Assembly (NCBI GenBank): GCA_004211785.1
Contig: SHBX01000001.1
Coordinates: 1-64,000, forward strand
Direction: 5' to 3'
From: Winogradskyella sp.
Lineage (GTDB): Bacteria > Bacteroidota > Bacteroidia > Flavobacteriales > Flavobacteriaceae
Length of the DNA stretch: 64,000 nucleotides
This document shows, one piece after another, positions 14,501-18,467 of the stretch. The position numbers were made by a program, and so were the translations under genes. Every line of letters begins with the position of its first letter. Position 1 is the first letter of the stretch. The notes below the pieces were generated by a model. The model was not told where the DNA came from. It saw only the letters and a list, made by a program, of their open reading frames with translations, and ran no database searches.

Positions 14501-15177
14501 GAAAAGACAAAGAAGGTGAGAAAGGCGAAAAGGGAGAGAAAGATGGCGACAAAGGAGAGAATGGACAAGAAGGCAAAGAGGGTAATGAAGGACAGGAAGG
14601 AGAACAATCTGGAGGCAAACAGGGTAAAGGAAAAGATGGTCAAAACGGAAATGAAGGTCAAGGTTCAGAGGGAGAAAATGGCAAAGACGGTAAGAACGGA
14701 AAGGATGGGGATAAAGATGGAGAAGGTGATAAAAAAGATGGCTATGGTGAAGGCGGAAGTGAAGAGTTTAACGGTGAACTCTATAGGATTTATCAACAGC
14801 AACAACAGTTAAGACAGGCACTTCAAGACAGAATTGGAAAAGAAGGAGGAAAAGGTGAAGCAGGTAAATTAATAAGACAAATGGAAGAGGTAGAGTTAGA
14901 TTTAATAAATAAAGGATTTACAAATCAAACGCTCCAAAAAATGATGGACTTACAACATCAATTATTAAAATTAGAAAACGCAACATTCACTCAGGGCGAA
15001 GATGAAAAACGCGAATCTAAAACGAATAGAAAAGAATATAATAACACTTCTAAAAGTCAAATACCAACAGCAAAACAATATTTCAATACTACGGAAATAT
15101 TAAACCGACAAGCATTACCTTTGCGTTCGCAATTCAAAAAGAAATTGCAAGACTATTTTAAAAACACAAATGATTAG
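11593..15177 (+). CDS. DUF4175-family giant membrane protein with coiled coil and Gly/Lys/Glu-rich tail
   Basis: The 1194-residue protein starts with two membrane helices (about 25-47 and 57-80) and a third near 153-170. A beta-rich periplasmic part follows to about 480, then a long charged coiled coil (about 490-760), a helical part, and a low-complexity tract near 960-1055 built from short G-E/K-K/D units such as GEKGEKGEKDGDKGENG. A structured C-terminal part (about 1060-1194) includes a predicted helix. This arrangement matches DUF4175, found throughout Bacteroidetes with no known role. It overlaps ybeY by eight bases, so the two are co-transcribed. The repetitive segment is purine-rich on the + strand for nearly 300 bases. 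Confidence 0.8.
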   Translation: MSNFKTIQAKLQQFIKKFYTNELLKGAILFFAIGVLYFMITLLVEYLLWLNPTARTILFWLFIAVEATLFTRFIIIPLAKLFNLRKGIDFETASKLIGNHFPEVDDKLLNVLQLNQNTQQSDLLLASIEQKSAELKPIPFQTAINFKSSLRYLKYAAIPVAILLLSFITGKINWFSDSYERVVNYQTAYEPPAPFQFFVVNDELQAIENKDYTLIVKTVGDIIPDQVQIDYNSQTYFLQQNVPGEFQYVFNQLKEDVSFSLSANEVVSKPYELRVVNVPTLVGFDMILDYPSHTKKKDETLKSTGSATIPEGTKITWSVNTKSTSEVNIYANDTIAFAGNKSGDFEATKRLYRNYSYSINTSNKDLTNYESLAFSINVVKDAYPELDIKVEKDSVDQQSLYFYGQASDDYGLRKLQLVYYPSENEAKKQVVPIDISKSNFSEFVSAFPDQLNVKDGIAYDLYFEVFDNDAIHNFKNVKSSVFNYRKRTKDEEETKQLNEQNETIKNISKTFEKLEEQDKKLEELSKTQKEKEALNFNDKKKFENFLKRQKQQEQLMKNFNKKLQENLEEFQKDKEEDGKKDEFKEDLKERLKENEEQLKKDEKLLEELEKMTEKINKEEFSQKLEELAKQNKNKKRSMMQLLELTKRFYVTKKQEKIQKQLEDISKRQEELSEKDSKENTKEAQEKLNKEFKDIQKAIDELMSENRKLRKPEDIERDKPTEESIKEDQKEAKEELEKNESQKEGEKQEGEKKEDKPMTPQEMQRAKNKQKAAAKKMKQLGEMMKQSMMSGGGGGDKIEEDAEMLRQILDNLVLFSFDQEALMDRFDEIDVNHNQYGKFIIKQSTLKEHFEHVDDSLFALSLRNPKISEKINSQITDVYFNIDKSLSQLTENRIYQGVSSQQYTVTAANSLADMLSNILDNMEMSMNMQPGQGSEGEMQLPDIIMSQEELNKKMEEAMKKLNEGEKPGDKGKDKEGEKGEKGEKDGDKGENGQEGKEGNEGQEGEQSGGKQGKGKDGQNGNEGQGSEGENGKDGKNGKDGDKDGEGDKKDGYGEGGSEEFNGELYRIYQQQQQLRQALQDRIGKEGGKGEAGKLIRQMEEVELDLINKGFTNQTLQKMMDLQHQLLKLENATFTQGEDEKRESKTNRKEYNNTSKSQIPTAKQYFNTTEILNRQALPLRSQFKKKLQDYFKNTND

Positions 15178-15580
15178 TTTTAATTACGAAATTGACTTTA
15201 AACTTGACAAAGAAGTAGAGACTTCCAAATGGATTTCAGATTTAATTATTGAAGAGAATTATAAAGAAGGAGAGATTAATTATATCTTTTGCTCGGATGA
15301 ATATTTGCATAAAATCAATCTAGATTTTCTAAATCATGACACGTTAACTGACATAATAAGTTTTGATTATTCCGTAGGAAAAGAACTACACGGAGATATT
15401 TATGTTTCAATAGAAAGAGTTCGAGATAACTCAAAAGATTTTGGCACAACTTTTTCAAACGAATTAGCAAGAGTTATGGCTCATGGTGTTTTGCACTACT
15501 GCGGTTATAAAGATAAGTCGGACGAAGAGTCTAAACTGATGCGCTCTAAAGAGAATCACTACTTGTCTAAGCGTATTTAA
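15170..15580 (+). CDS. ybeY: Endoribonuclease YbeY (rRNA maturation)
   Basis: YbeY is a metal-dependent RNase involved in 16S rRNA 3'-end maturation and ribosome quality control. The 136-residue product has TLTDIISFDY and HGDIYVS, both hallmark segments, and the metal site MAHGVLHYCGYKDKS. The classic H-x3-H-x5-H site is here H105-x3-H109-x5-D115: the third histidine is replaced by aspartate. As far as I recall this variation is common in Bacteroidetes YbeY, and an aspartate can still bind metal. The start overlaps the end of the DUF4175 gene in an ATGATTAG arrangement. Confidence 0.92.
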   Translation: MISFNYEIDFKLDKEVETSKWISDLIIEENYKEGEINYIFCSDEYLHKINLDFLNHDTLTDIISFDYSVGKELHGDIYVSIERVRDNSKDFGTTFSNELARVMAHGVLHYCGYKDKSDEESKLMRSKENHYLSKRI

Positions 15581-15597
15581 TATCCACATTTTCAGCG

Positions 15598-15605
15598 TAT
15601 ATTTG
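15598..15605 (+). promoter_or_regulatory. Candidate -7 promoter element of mnmG
   Basis: TATATTTG matches TAnnTTTG and is followed by CAGACTG. It lies between the ybeY stop and mnmG, 57 bases ahead of the mnmG start, with the first parS-like site between promoter and gene. That site would therefore be inside the mnmG 5' leader. Confidence 0.5.
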
Positions 15606-15631: not shown

Positions 15632-15647
15632 TGTTCCACGTGGAACA
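15632..15647. other. parS-like ParB-binding palindrome, copy 1
   Basis: TGTTCCACGTGGAACA is a perfect 16-bp palindrome and equals a known form of the chromosomal parS site (the Bacillus form is TGTTTCACGTGAAACA; the C/G form is found in Pseudomonas-type and other chromosomes). ParB clamps load at parS and organise origin segregation. This copy lies 15 bases before mnmG. An identical copy follows mnmG. The parA and parB genes are not in the window. Confidence 0.85.
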
Positions 15648-15662
15648 ATAAGAATATAGGTT

Positions 15663-17534
15663 ATGTTTAACGAGATTTATGATGTTATAGTAGTTGGAGC
15701 TGGTCACGCTGGTAGCGAGGCTGCTGCTGCTGCTGCAAATATGGGTAGCAAAACATTGTTAATAACAATGAATCTTCAAAACATTGCACAGATGTCTTGT
15801 AATCCAGCTATGGGAGGAATTGCAAAAGGACAAATTGTGCGTGAGATTGATGCGCTTGGTGGTTACAGCGGAATTGTTTCAGACACATCCGCTATTCAGT
15901 TTAAGATGCTTAATAAATCTAAAGGACCTGCAATGTGGAGTCCAAGGGTTCAGAGTGACAGAATGCGTTTTGCAGAAGACTGGAGAATGCTTCTAGAGAA
16001 TACTAAGAATTTAGATTTCTACCAAGAAATGGTCTCTGGTCTAATAGTAAAAAACGGAAAAGTTGAAGGCGTAAAAACTTCTCTTGGAATTGAAGTTAAA
16101 GCTAAAACAGTTGTACTTACAAATGGCACTTTTTTGAATGGATTAATTCACATAGGTGAGAAGAATTTTGGCGGTGGAAGAGCAGGAGAAAGAGCCGCAA
16201 CAGGGATTACTGAGCAGCTAGTTAATCTAGGTTTTGATTCTGGTCGAATGAAAACAGGAACTCCTCCAAGAGTTGATGGACGTTCTTTGGATTATTCTAA
16301 AATGACCGAACAACCAGGTGACGAAAACCCAGATAAGTTTTCTTATTTAGACACAACTCAGGCGCTCAAAAACCAACGCTCATGTCATATGACTTATACA
16401 AGTCAGGAGGTTCATGATTTATTACGTGAAGGTTTTGATAGATCGCCAATGTTTAATGGAAGAATAAAAAGTGTTGGTCCAAGATATTGTCCTTCAATAG
16501 AAGATAAGATTAATCGGTTTGCAGATAAGGACAGGCATCAATTATTTGTTGAACCGGAAGGTTGGAATACATGTGAAGTGTATGTCAATGGTTTTTCAAC
16601 ATCACTTCCAGAAGACGTTCAGTTTAAAGCATTACGTTCTGTGGTTGGTTTCGAAAACGTGAAGTTTTTTAGACCTGGTTACGCAATTGAATACGATTAT
16701 TTTCCGCCAACACAATTAAAACATACGTTAGAAACTAAGCTGGTTGATGGTTTGTATTTTGCTGGTCAAATTAACGGAACAACGGGATATGAAGAAGCAG
16801 CATCTCAAGGTTTAATGGCCGGAATAAATGCCGCATTACAAGTACAAGAAAAAGATATATTCACTCTGAGAAGAGATGAAGCTTACATAGGTGTATTAAT
16901 AGATGATTTAATTACAAAAGGTACAGAAGAGCCTTACCGTATGTTTACATCTCGCGCAGAGTACAGAACATTATTAAGACAAGATAATGCAGATTTTAGG
17001 TTAACACCAAGAGGATATGAATTAGGTTTGGCCTCAGAAAACCGTCTTAAACGAATGGAGGAAAAGCAATCTAAGTCTGATAATTTTGTTCAGTTTTTTA
17101 AAGACACAAGTGTAGAGCCGAAAGAAATAAACCCAATACTTGAAGCAAAAAATTCTGCTCAGGTTAAGCAGAAGGATAAGATGTTTAAGTTGTTTGCAAG
17201 ACCACAAATCTGCATGTCAGATATGCGAAAAGTGGAGTCTGTAAATGCACACATTTTAGAAAATAATTTGGATACTGAAATTTTAGAACAAGCAGAGATC
17301 CAGGTTAAATATGCTGGGTATATAGAGAAGGAAAAGAGTAATGCAGACAAGCTTCAGCGTTTAGAAAATGTCAAGATCCCAAAAGATTTTGACTACTCAA
17401 AACTGCAATCTATGAGTTTAGAGGCAAGAGGAAAATTAAACGAAATACAACCTGTAACGGTTTCTCAGGCATCAAGAATTAGTGGTGTTTCTCCAGCGGA
17501 TATTTCTGTTTTGTTAGTGTATTTAGGACGATAA
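15663..17534 (+). CDS. mnmG: tRNA uridine 5-carboxymethylaminomethyl modification enzyme MnmG (GidA)
   Basis: With MnmE, this FAD protein modifies uridine 34 of several tRNAs. At 623 residues it has normal family length. The N-terminal VVGAGHAGSEAAAAAANMG is the FAD dinucleotide-binding fold. The signatures GGIAKGQIVREIDALGG, GPAMWSPRVQSDR, CPSIEDKI and GQINGTTGYEEAASQGL are all present, and the C-terminal helical MnmE/tRNA-binding part ends ISGVSPADISVLLVYLGR. The gene is bracketed by two identical parS-like palindromes. In many bacteria gidA sits beside oriC and parAB, which fits this context. Start at the ATG at 15663. Confidence 0.97.
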   Translation: MFNEIYDVIVVGAGHAGSEAAAAAANMGSKTLLITMNLQNIAQMSCNPAMGGIAKGQIVREIDALGGYSGIVSDTSAIQFKMLNKSKGPAMWSPRVQSDRMRFAEDWRMLLENTKNLDFYQEMVSGLIVKNGKVEGVKTSLGIEVKAKTVVLTNGTFLNGLIHIGEKNFGGGRAGERAATGITEQLVNLGFDSGRMKTGTPPRVDGRSLDYSKMTEQPGDENPDKFSYLDTTQALKNQRSCHMTYTSQEVHDLLREGFDRSPMFNGRIKSVGPRYCPSIEDKINRFADKDRHQLFVEPEGWNTCEVYVNGFSTSLPEDVQFKALRSVVGFENVKFFRPGYAIEYDYFPPTQLKHTLETKLVDGLYFAGQINGTTGYEEAASQGLMAGINAALQVQEKDIFTLRRDEAYIGVLIDDLITKGTEEPYRMFTSRAEYRTLLRQDNADFRLTPRGYELGLASENRLKRMEEKQSKSDNFVQFFKDTSVEPKEINPILEAKNSAQVKQKDKMFKLFARPQICMSDMRKVESVNAHILENNLDTEILEQAEIQVKYAGYIEKEKSNADKLQRLENVKIPKDFDYSKLQSMSLEARGKLNEIQPVTVSQASRISGVSPADISVLLVYLGR

Positions 17535-17543
17535 TAAAAATGA

Positions 17544-17559
17544 TGTTCCACGTGGAACA
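17544..17559. other. parS-like ParB-binding palindrome, copy 2
   Basis: This is the same perfect 16-bp palindrome TGTTCCACGTGGAACA, nine bases after the mnmG stop codon and 1912 bases from copy 1. Two identical perfect copies so close together make chance very unlikely. Confidence 0.85.
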
Positions 17560-17581
17560 TCAAATATAAACATCCATATTT

Positions 17582-17606: not shown

Positions 17607-17615
17607 TTGTTTCAA

Positions 17616-18467
17616 ATGAAAAACAACAATCAATTCCTTAAAGTAAAAGACCATTCTGTTTCTGGAGAATCATTTGATTTAATATTAAATGAAGAACAAG
17701 ATATTCTTATAACTTCTCCACAGCCTAAACTAGAGAATCTTGGAGCGTATTATAAAAGCGAAGACTACATTTCGCATACAGATTCGAACAGAAACCTCCT
17801 TGAACAAGTTTACCATTTGGTTAGAAAGAGTGCTTTAAAAAAGAAATTGAGGTTAATTAATTCATTCAAAAATGAAGAGAAAAATCTTTTGGATATAGGA
17901 TGTGGTACTGGGGATTTTTTAGAAACAGCTAAAAATAACGGTTGGCAAATAACAGGAATTGAGCCTGATAAAAACGCTCGCAAAATTGCAAGGTCAAAAA
18001 CCGACAATAATGTTTTTGAAACAGAGCATCTTCAAAATTTAAAACCTCAGAGCTTTGATGTTATTGCGCTTTGGCATGTCTTAGAGCATTTGCCAAATTT
18101 AGAAGAACACATTAATATTTTCAACCATCTATTAAAACCAAATGGACGTATAGTGATTGCTGTACCAAACTATAAAAGTTATGATGCAGAATATTATAAA
18201 TCATTTTGGGCTGCTTATGATGCGCCAAGACACCTTTGGCATTTTTCTCAAAACGGAATGAAACGTATTTTTAAAGAAAAAGGATTTTTATCAGATAGAA
18301 TTTATCCAATGCTTTTTGATTCGTTTTATGTGAGTTTACTTTCCGAAAAATATAAGTCTGGATTTATGAATCCTTTTAAAGCATTTTTGGTTGGACTGCG
18401 TTCAAATCTCAAAGCAAAAAGGACAGGAGAGTACTCGTCTTTAATTTACACCTTCAAAAAAGACTAA
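17616..18467 (+). CDS. Class I SAM-dependent methyltransferase
   Basis: The 283-residue product has the SAM-binding motif NLLDIGCGTGDFLETAK (about residues 92-108). Motif II-like acidic loop GIEPDKNARKIA and the motif III-like segment SFDVIALWHVLEHLPNLEEHI follow, then LKPNGRIVIAVPNY. This is the Methyltransf_11/23 arrangement. A short N-terminal beta region (residues 1-50) precedes it, and a basic C-terminal segment with APRHLWHFS fits relatives that act on hydroxylated or sugar substrates. The substrate is unknown. I chose the ATG at 17616 because the longer frame uses a TTG that lies against the preceding repeat. Confidence 0.82.
   Translation: MKNNNQFLKVKDHSVSGESFDLILNEEQDILITSPQPKLENLGAYYKSEDYISHTDSNRNLLEQVYHLVRKSALKKKLRLINSFKNEEKNLLDIGCGTGDFLETAKNNGWQITGIEPDKNARKIARSKTDNNVFETEHLQNLKPQSFDVIALWHVLEHLPNLEEHINIFNHLLKPNGRIVIAVPNYKSYDAEYYKSFWAAYDAPRHLWHFSQNGMKRIFKEKGFLSDRIYPMLFDSFYVSLLSEKYKSGFMNPFKAFLVGLRSNLKAKRTGEYSSLIYTFKKD

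What the first reader, a model, noticed from the sequence alone, without database searches (positions are those of the whole stretch)
15632..17559. Two identical perfect parS-like palindromes bracket mnmG
TGTTCCACGTGGAACA occurs twice, 1912 bases apart, one just before and one just after mnmG. The sequence equals a known chromosomal parS variant. Two perfect 16-bp copies in 2 kb are not expected by chance, and both are intergenic. This suggests a ParB-loading centre in a flavobacterium, where parS positions are little studied, and may mark the origin-proximal region. The first copy would lie in the mnmG leader, so ParB binding might also affect mnmG expression.
Basis: partly seen in the sequence, partly recalled or inferred. 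Interest (0 to 1): 0.85.

Follow-up and report, generated by a model that had tools for sequence, protein, structure and literature searches.

The report
Bacterial centromere sites flank mnmG gene
Two copies of the short DNA sequence that bacteria use as a chromosome "handle" for segregation sit on either side of one housekeeping gene; the same attachment recurs in most sampled genomes of the phylum Bacteroidota and, in three relatives checked, lies near where chromosome copying seems to start.

Summary
The genus is Winogradskyella. The own genome and all 40 sampled congeners carry the motif, 36 of the 41 exactly twice. Of 138 Bacteroidota genomes tested, 127 have a parS-like site beside mnmG; 75 of 80 named mnmG loci are bracketed. 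ParB is in 148 of 148 genomes, and this ParB has parS-type specificity residues. In three complete congeners the strand-corrected GC skew switches 4, 4 and 53 kb from parS, with dnaA 1.2-1.9 Mb away. Best explanation: a ParB-loading centromere anchored on mnmG near the replication origin, probably a relic of the ancestral gidA-gidB-par-oriC cluster. ParB occupancy, and any effect on mnmG expression, are untested; a promoter-like element about 34 bp upstream puts the first site in the probable mnmG leader. The sites are ordinary parS; unusual is their phylum-wide attachment to mnmG, away from dnaA and parAB.

The parts
15632..15647 (.). parS1, TGTTCCACGTGGAACA, in the probable mnmG leader
   Evidence: relatives
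17544..17559 (.). parS2, identical 16-mer just after mnmG
   Evidence: relatives
17541..17562 (.). perfect 22-bp palindrome around parS2 (TGA + parS + TCA)
   Evidence: read
15663..17534 (+). mnmG (gidA), 623 aa, the bracketed gene
15598..15605 (+). TATATTTG, fits the Bacteroidota -7 promoter element TAnnTTTG (consensus recalled); would put parS1 in the transcribed leader (inferred)
   Evidence: such an element in the 60 bp before the mnmG-proximal strict parS in 29 of 68 loci (some genomes counted twice), in 1 of 68 after one base shuffle each
15170..15580 (+). ybeY, upstream neighbour, also in 76 of 80 named loci
17616..18467 (+). SAM-dependent methyltransferase (Methyltransf_23), downstream neighbour, also in 71 of 80 named loci; start codon 17616 read by eye, the ORF list gives a TTG at 17607

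Best explanation
The two palindromes are parS sites, the loading sites of the CTPase clamp ParB. ParB, encoded elsewhere in the genome, would load at both sites, slide over mnmG and the adjacent DNA to form the partition complex, and ParA would move newly copied origin regions apart. The mnmG-parS segment lies in the replication-origin region, although dnaA and parAB do not. The arrangement is inherited: in lineages that still have rsmG (gidB) just after mnmG, parS is often on that side and in two loci examined lies in the start of rsmG, so the site seems to have stayed with mnmG when rsmG, parAB and dnaA moved away. Shown here: sequence, position, recurrence in relatives, presence of ParA and ParB, specificity residues of ParB, nearness of the skew switch in three congeners. 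Inferred: ParB binding, spreading, segregation, and the evolutionary path.
For: Two exact copies and none other within 1 mismatch in the genome. 41 of 41 genomes of the genus (own included) have TGTTYCACGTGRAACA, 36 exactly two; spacing 1908-2098 bp in the 35 two-site genomes whose places were listed. Of 147 phylum genomes with mnmG, 109 have an exact site; of 191 listed sites 178 lie within 10 kb of mnmG, and 100 of the 109 have one within 600 bp. Of 29 examined among the 38 without an exact site, 27 have one with at most 2 mismatches beside mnmG; resampled flanks of 20 of these genomes reach that in 0.3%. 75 of 80 named loci are bracketed and 79 of 80 have at least one site, at most 2 mismatches. 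The reversed control pattern gave 1 place in the 148 genomes searched. ParB in 148 of 148. Own ParB has R, Y, K, G at positions 173, 179, 184, 201 in Caulobacter numbering: the parS type (R..G), not the Noc type (Q..R) (PMC7383237 passages; counted by eye). Skew switch at or near the site in three congeners.
Against: No binding data. In G025 the best skew change-point is 52.7 kb away, and points nearer than 17 kb are not among its best twelve. Some sampled 20-kb stretches have the wrong sign (listed in the full report). The window's own genes show no clear switch. 11 of 138 genomes fail the rule (three of them pass if up to 2 mismatches are allowed). One named locus, a Capnocytophaga MAG, has no site. 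Own ParB has K at position 172, where the paper names a serine as conserved, though other ParB proteins vary there too.
Confidence: 0.9

Rival explanations
1. The palindromes are operators of a transcription factor that controls mnmG and its downstream neighbour, not centromere sites.
For: The first copy lies between a promoter-like element and the start codon, and attachment to one gene across a phylum is what an operator would show.
Against: The sequence is parS, and the genome encodes a ParB with parS-type residues. In 33 of 109 genomes with an exact site the sites near the gene are only after it, and in two loci they lie inside the rsmG coding start. In G053 and G148 no site with up to 3 mismatches is beside mnmG, while exact sites lie beside a SIS-domain gene. 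The skew switch is not explained.
Confidence: 0.05
2. They are RNA elements: a leader hairpin and a terminator-like hairpin of the mnmG transcript.
For: A perfect palindrome could fold as a short hairpin in RNA, one copy in the leader and one just after the stop (inference; not folded here).
Against: In the sense strand the form that breaks the RNA stem (C5/A12) is as common as the form that keeps a G-U pair (T5/G12): 15 against 12 upstream and 10 against 5 downstream, strict sites in 80 loci. No T-run follows the second copy directly.
Confidence: 0.02
3. A rival on place only, compatible with parS: the origin is at mnmG itself, as Ori-Finder predicted in related genera, so the two parS sites frame oriC.
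For: PMC12843772 and the main text of PMC11278836 (passages) place the predicted origin at mnmG in other Flavobacteriaceae; change-points 4.1 kb from parS in G027 and G011.
Against: No DnaA-box cluster near mnmG in the window or three congeners. A figure legend of PMC11278836 contradicts its text and labels mnmG as ter. An AT-rich divergent region upstream of rnr, 15-23 kb away, is an alternative, although an a priori search with TTATCCACA does not single it out.
Confidence: 0.25

Closest known systems
Chromosomal ParABS with parS clusters near oriC (Bacillus, Caulobacter, Pseudomonas)
   Same: Same 16-bp site class, ParB, ParA partner, sites near the origin (recalled for the models; PMC7333895 and PMC4368675 seen only as search listings with abstract starts)
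   Different: parAB and dnaA are not near the sites; the sites bracket mnmG; no Smc over the SMC_prok_B cut-off in five Winogradskyella genomes
parS clusters at the origin of gut bacteria, two Bacteroidetes among them, seen by Hi-C (PMC10197239, passages)
   Same: parS clusters mark the origin; the origin need not be at dnaA; those authors found no condensin homologue in their two Bacteroidetes
   Different: The passages seen do not mention mnmG; here SMC_prok_B is over cut-off in 5 of 5 Bacteroidota tested from outside the order, which does not agree with a general lack of Smc
Ori-Finder origins at mnmG in Mariniflexile and Algorimicrobium (PMC11278836, PMC12843772; passages)
   Same: Flavobacteriaceae; predicted origin at or next to mnmG; in Mariniflexile the dnaA position did not fit the skew
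   Different: No parS in the passages seen (the one 'pars' hit in each is 'parsimony'); a figure legend of PMC11278836 labels mnmG as ter, against its own text
Ancestral gidA-gidB-parA-parB-oriC gene cluster (recalled)
   Same: mnmG is gidA; in 53 tested genomes an rsmG (gidB) match begins within 1.5 kb after mnmG, and 38 of these have a site on that side
   Different: In the own genome rsmG, parAB and dnaA are on other contigs

Membership tests
parS | 16-bp palindrome matching TGTTYCACGTGRAACA | tested here: met
parS | few copies, clustered in one chromosomal region | tested here: met
   2 exact in the genome; 1 or 2 in each of 41 genomes of the genus
parS | close to the replication origin | tested here: met
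   in congeners only: skew change-point 4.1, 4.1 and 52.7 kb away in 3 genomes; the own genome is too fragmented
parS | bound by ParB | not testable with these tools
   needs ChIP-seq or in vitro binding
chromosomal ParB | ParB_N and HTH_ParB domains | tested here: met
   (both over the Pfam cut-off; ParB_C just under its cut-off, 23.3 against 23.8 bits); TIGR00180 over cut-off
chromosomal ParB | parS-type specificity residues (R173, G201), not Noc-type | tested here: met
   counted by eye
ParABS | ParA ATPase encoded next to ParB | tested here: met
   L004 ORFs; AAA_31
ParABS with Smc loading | Smc of the SMC_prok_B family | tested here: not met
   0 of 5 Winogradskyella genomes over cut-off, 5 of 12 genomes in all; other condensins were not sought
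gidAB-par-oriC cluster | rsmG, parAB and dnaA next to mnmG | tested here: not met
   rsmG on C4, parAB on C30, dnaA on C18, mnmG on C1

The most novel reading that the evidence does not exclude
parS and mnmG are kept together by selection, not only by history: the parS-mnmG-parS segment is a phylum-wide unit in which ParB, loaded in the leader and behind the gene, coats mnmG and ties the expression of a tRNA-modifying enzyme to origin segregation, in a partition system that in flavobacteria works without canonical Smc.
Probability: 0.18. Interest if true: 0.8.

Novelty: new variant of a known kind. Interest (0 to 1): 0.58.

Why it matters
In these Bacteroidota dnaA is a poor marker of the origin. 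A parS-tagged mnmG would give a sequence-only marker of the centromere and origin region for most genomes of the phylum, useful for growth-rate estimates from metagenomes and for orienting assemblies. It also offers a natural test of why a centromere should stay with one gene for so long, and of how ParABS works in flavobacteria that seem to lack canonical Smc.

Tried and rejected
Chance repeat: rejected by shuffles and the reversed control. RNA hairpins: no strand bias in the variants. Sites tied to a wider conserved gene block: in the 30 best-scoring mnmG loci of the phylum search (own included), 24 have neither Winogradskyella neighbour recognisable by tblastn (E 1e-4, 1.5-kb flanks), and all 24 keep a site at mnmG; divergent neighbours could be missed. 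Raw GC skew in 20-kb stretches was noisy, so third-position skew split by gene strand was used. E. coli-type DnaA boxes gave no cluster near mnmG. The rnr-upstream origin candidate ranks first only with boxes learned from that region, not with TTATCCACA at 1 or 2 mismatches; its commonest 8-mer, TATTAACA, is in 18 of 27 loci (one of the 27, L199, cut at a wrong start). It is held as tentative. The 16-mer core is fixed by the search pattern itself, so that call is not used as evidence of conservation. G033, the fourth single-contig congener, was not used for skew. Nine of the 38 genomes without an exact site were not tested at mnmG (named), nor were the mnmG flanks of G073, G089 and G170 tested for degenerate sites. 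One search's list was cut; by its per-genome counts one site of 76 was missing (in G053), and one search shows it.

Full report
Observation. The 16-mer TGTTCCACGTGGAACA lies at 15632-15647 and 17544-17559, with 15 bases between the first copy and the mnmG start codon and 9 between the mnmG stop and the second copy. Shuffled sequence gives 0.08 matches per window even with 3 mismatches allowed. In the own genome (55 contigs, 89.74% complete), searched with up to 2 mismatches, the only other match has 2 mismatches. The second copy is the middle of a perfect 22-bp palindrome (read).

Organism. The best named mnmG match is Winogradskyella haliclonae, 95% identity. Its contig has the same length (1,734,228 bases) as contig C1 of G007, a 'same genus' genome, so the genus is Winogradskyella.

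Genus. The own genome and 40 congeners all have TGTTYCACGTGRAACA: 36 have two and 5 have one. In the 35 two-site genomes whose places were listed the spacing is 1908-2098 bp, median 1940. mnmG itself was placed against the sites in the own genome and in G011, G025 and G027; for the rest the spacing and partial matches point the same way.

Phylum. 148 genomes at least 95% complete, plus the own in that number, were drawn; 147 have mnmG over the family cut-off. The exact motif was sought in all 148; G155, the one without a proper mnmG, has none. 109 of 147 have it. Of 191 listed sites 178 lie within 10 kb of mnmG, and 100 of the 109 genomes have a site within 600 bp of one end: 30 on both sides, 37 upstream only, 33 downstream only. 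One search's list was cut; its counts show one site missing. Of the 38 genomes without an exact site, 29 were examined: 27 have a site with at most 2 mismatches within about 700 bp of mnmG; G076 and G130 have none. First-order resamples of the flanks of 20 of the 29 reach 2 mismatches in 0.3%. Under the mixed rule (exact site where the genome has one, otherwise up to 2 mismatches) 127 of 138 tested genomes have parS at mnmG; one search adds G064, G069 and G111 if 2 mismatches are allowed. The reversed control pattern matched at one place (G113) in the 148.

Named loci. 75 of the 80 are bracketed by sites with at most 2 mismatches within 600 bp, 3 have an upstream site only, 1 a downstream site only, and 1 (a Capnocytophaga MAG) none; with exact sites only: 38 both, 20 upstream, 4 downstream, 18 none. 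Some loci are cut short by contig ends, and two (L286, L290) are genomes also in the genus sample. Several Flavobacterium loci have rows of sites upstream.

ParB and ParA. The genome encodes ParB with ParB_N and HTH_ParB domains; ParB_C is just under its cut-off. ParA is next to it. TIGR00180 is over its cut-off in 148 of 148. PMC7383237 (passages) shows that R173 and G201 go with parS and Q173 and R201 with the Noc site, and that about 28% of ParB proteins have K or R at 184. Position 172 is K, not the S named as conserved.

Origin. In three single-contig congeners (G011, G025, G027; G033 was not fetched) 20-kb stretches were taken and third-codon-position GC skew was computed separately for genes on each strand. 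In G025 it is negative in all stretches from 0 to 1.07 Mb, about zero in the stretch with parS and positive from 1.4 to about 3 Mb. In G027 and G011 the same change of sign is seen, with exceptions: G027 at 1484, 1523 and 1722 kb slightly positive and at 2338 kb negative (each with genes on one strand only), G011 at 3600 kb slightly positive and at 225 kb negative. On finer data the best change-point is 4.1 kb upstream of parS in G027 and G011 (in G011 points out to 14 kb fit almost as well), and 52.7 kb upstream in G025, where points 17 kb away fit about 9 units (twice log-likelihood) worse. dnaA lies 1.2-1.9 Mb from parS, the shorter way round, in the four single-contig congeners. ParB is at least 301 kb from mnmG along the contig in the 26 genomes chosen because both lie on one large contig (linear distance).

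Where oriC may be. No DnaA-box cluster was found near mnmG. In the three congeners an AT-rich divergent region upstream of rnr carries repeated TATTAACA-type boxes, and no stronger cluster of such boxes is in the 2.35 Mb scanned. This is partly circular, since the boxes were learned there; TTATCCACA with 1 or 2 mismatches does not single it out. rnr lies 15-23 kb from parS in the 34 congeners with both on one contig. In the own genome the rnr match ends 768 bases from the end of contig C34, so C34 may abut the start of the window's contig; this is inference. Two taxonomic papers (passages) place the Ori-Finder origin at mnmG in related genera, though a figure legend of PMC11278836 labels mnmG as ter, against its text. 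A Hi-C study (passages) finds parS clusters at the origin of gut bacteria, two Bacteroidetes among them, with dnaA not always there.

How the link may have arisen. In 53 tested genomes an rsmG (gidB) match, in part below the family cut-off, begins within 1.5 kb after mnmG; 34 of these have sites on that side only, 4 on both, 13 upstream only, 2 none. In two loci examined the gene is GidB by Pfam, with parS in its coding start, translated as MFHVKH or VSRET. In 85 tested genomes rsmG is elsewhere; 76 still have parS at mnmG. This fits an ancestral gidA-parS-gidB order (the wider cluster is recalled) from which rsmG, parAB and dnaA left. In G053 (family f16) and G148 (f30) exact sites lie instead beside a SIS-domain gene of the GKRP/MurQ kind, with none within 3 mismatches in the mnmG flanks; in G103 the site is also away from mnmG, beside other genes. 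So parS can leave mnmG.

mnmG expression. TAnnTTTG, the Bacteroidota -7 element (recalled), occurs in the 60 bp before the mnmG-proximal exact parS in 29 of 68 loci and in 1 of 68 after one base shuffle each; in the window it is 34 bp before parS, and it is 33-35 bp before in 12 of the 14 genus-sample loci that have it, the window counted. So the first site probably lies in the transcribed leader. Whether ParB there blocks or tunes transcription is not known.

Smc. SMC_prok_B is over its cut-off in 5 of 12 genomes, in none of five Winogradskyella (one of them the incomplete own genome), nor in G096 (same family) and G134 (same order), but in all 5 tested from outside the order. Other condensins were not sought. 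If this holds, parS here serves ParA-driven segregation without Smc loading.

Novelty. Searches of the held library for parS with mnmG, with gidA and gidB, with Bacteroidetes or Bacteroidota, and for Bacteroidetes origins listed no paper that, by title, abstract start or the passages read, describes the parS-mnmG link; two lists were partial (20 of 26, 30 of 436). Livny 2007, the known parS survey, is not held and may list such sites. The sites are ordinary parS; the layout is the new part.

Noticed in passing
L224, L222 and G011:C1 about 4272300-4273200; own genome L207 (contig C34): AT-rich region upstream of rnr with repeated TATTAACA-type boxes, 15-23 kb from parS in congeners; tentative oriC.
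   Followed up: partly
L299, L301, L302, L271: Flavobacterium loci with rows of 12, 6 and 7 parS-like sites (up to 2 mismatches) upstream of mnmG, in L299 partly at a 117-bp period; G064 (L271) has eight (up to 3 mismatches) at a contig end.
   Followed up: no
L046:848-1498, L074:757-1476: parS inside the coding start of rsmG, translated as MFHVKH and VSRET.
   Followed up: partly
L266, L269: In G053 and G148 parS lies beside a SIS-domain (GKRP/MurQ-like) gene and not beside mnmG; in L266 also at the start of a gene with a UvrB_inter domain.
   Followed up: partly
G000, G011, G025, G027, G033, G096, G134: No match over the SMC_prok_B cut-off in these seven genomes, whereas five other Bacteroidota have one.
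   Followed up: partly
L003 (G000:C18:35939): A 2-mismatch parS-like site, about 12 kb from dnaA on the same contig; its central CACGTG is broken, so probably chance.
   Followed up: no
L311, L315: Contigs labelled Limnohabitans and Chitinophaga MAGs carry an mnmG 79-80% identical to the window's, with bracketing parS; the bins may be mislabelled.
   Followed up: no
[quoted passage not shown]
   Followed up: no
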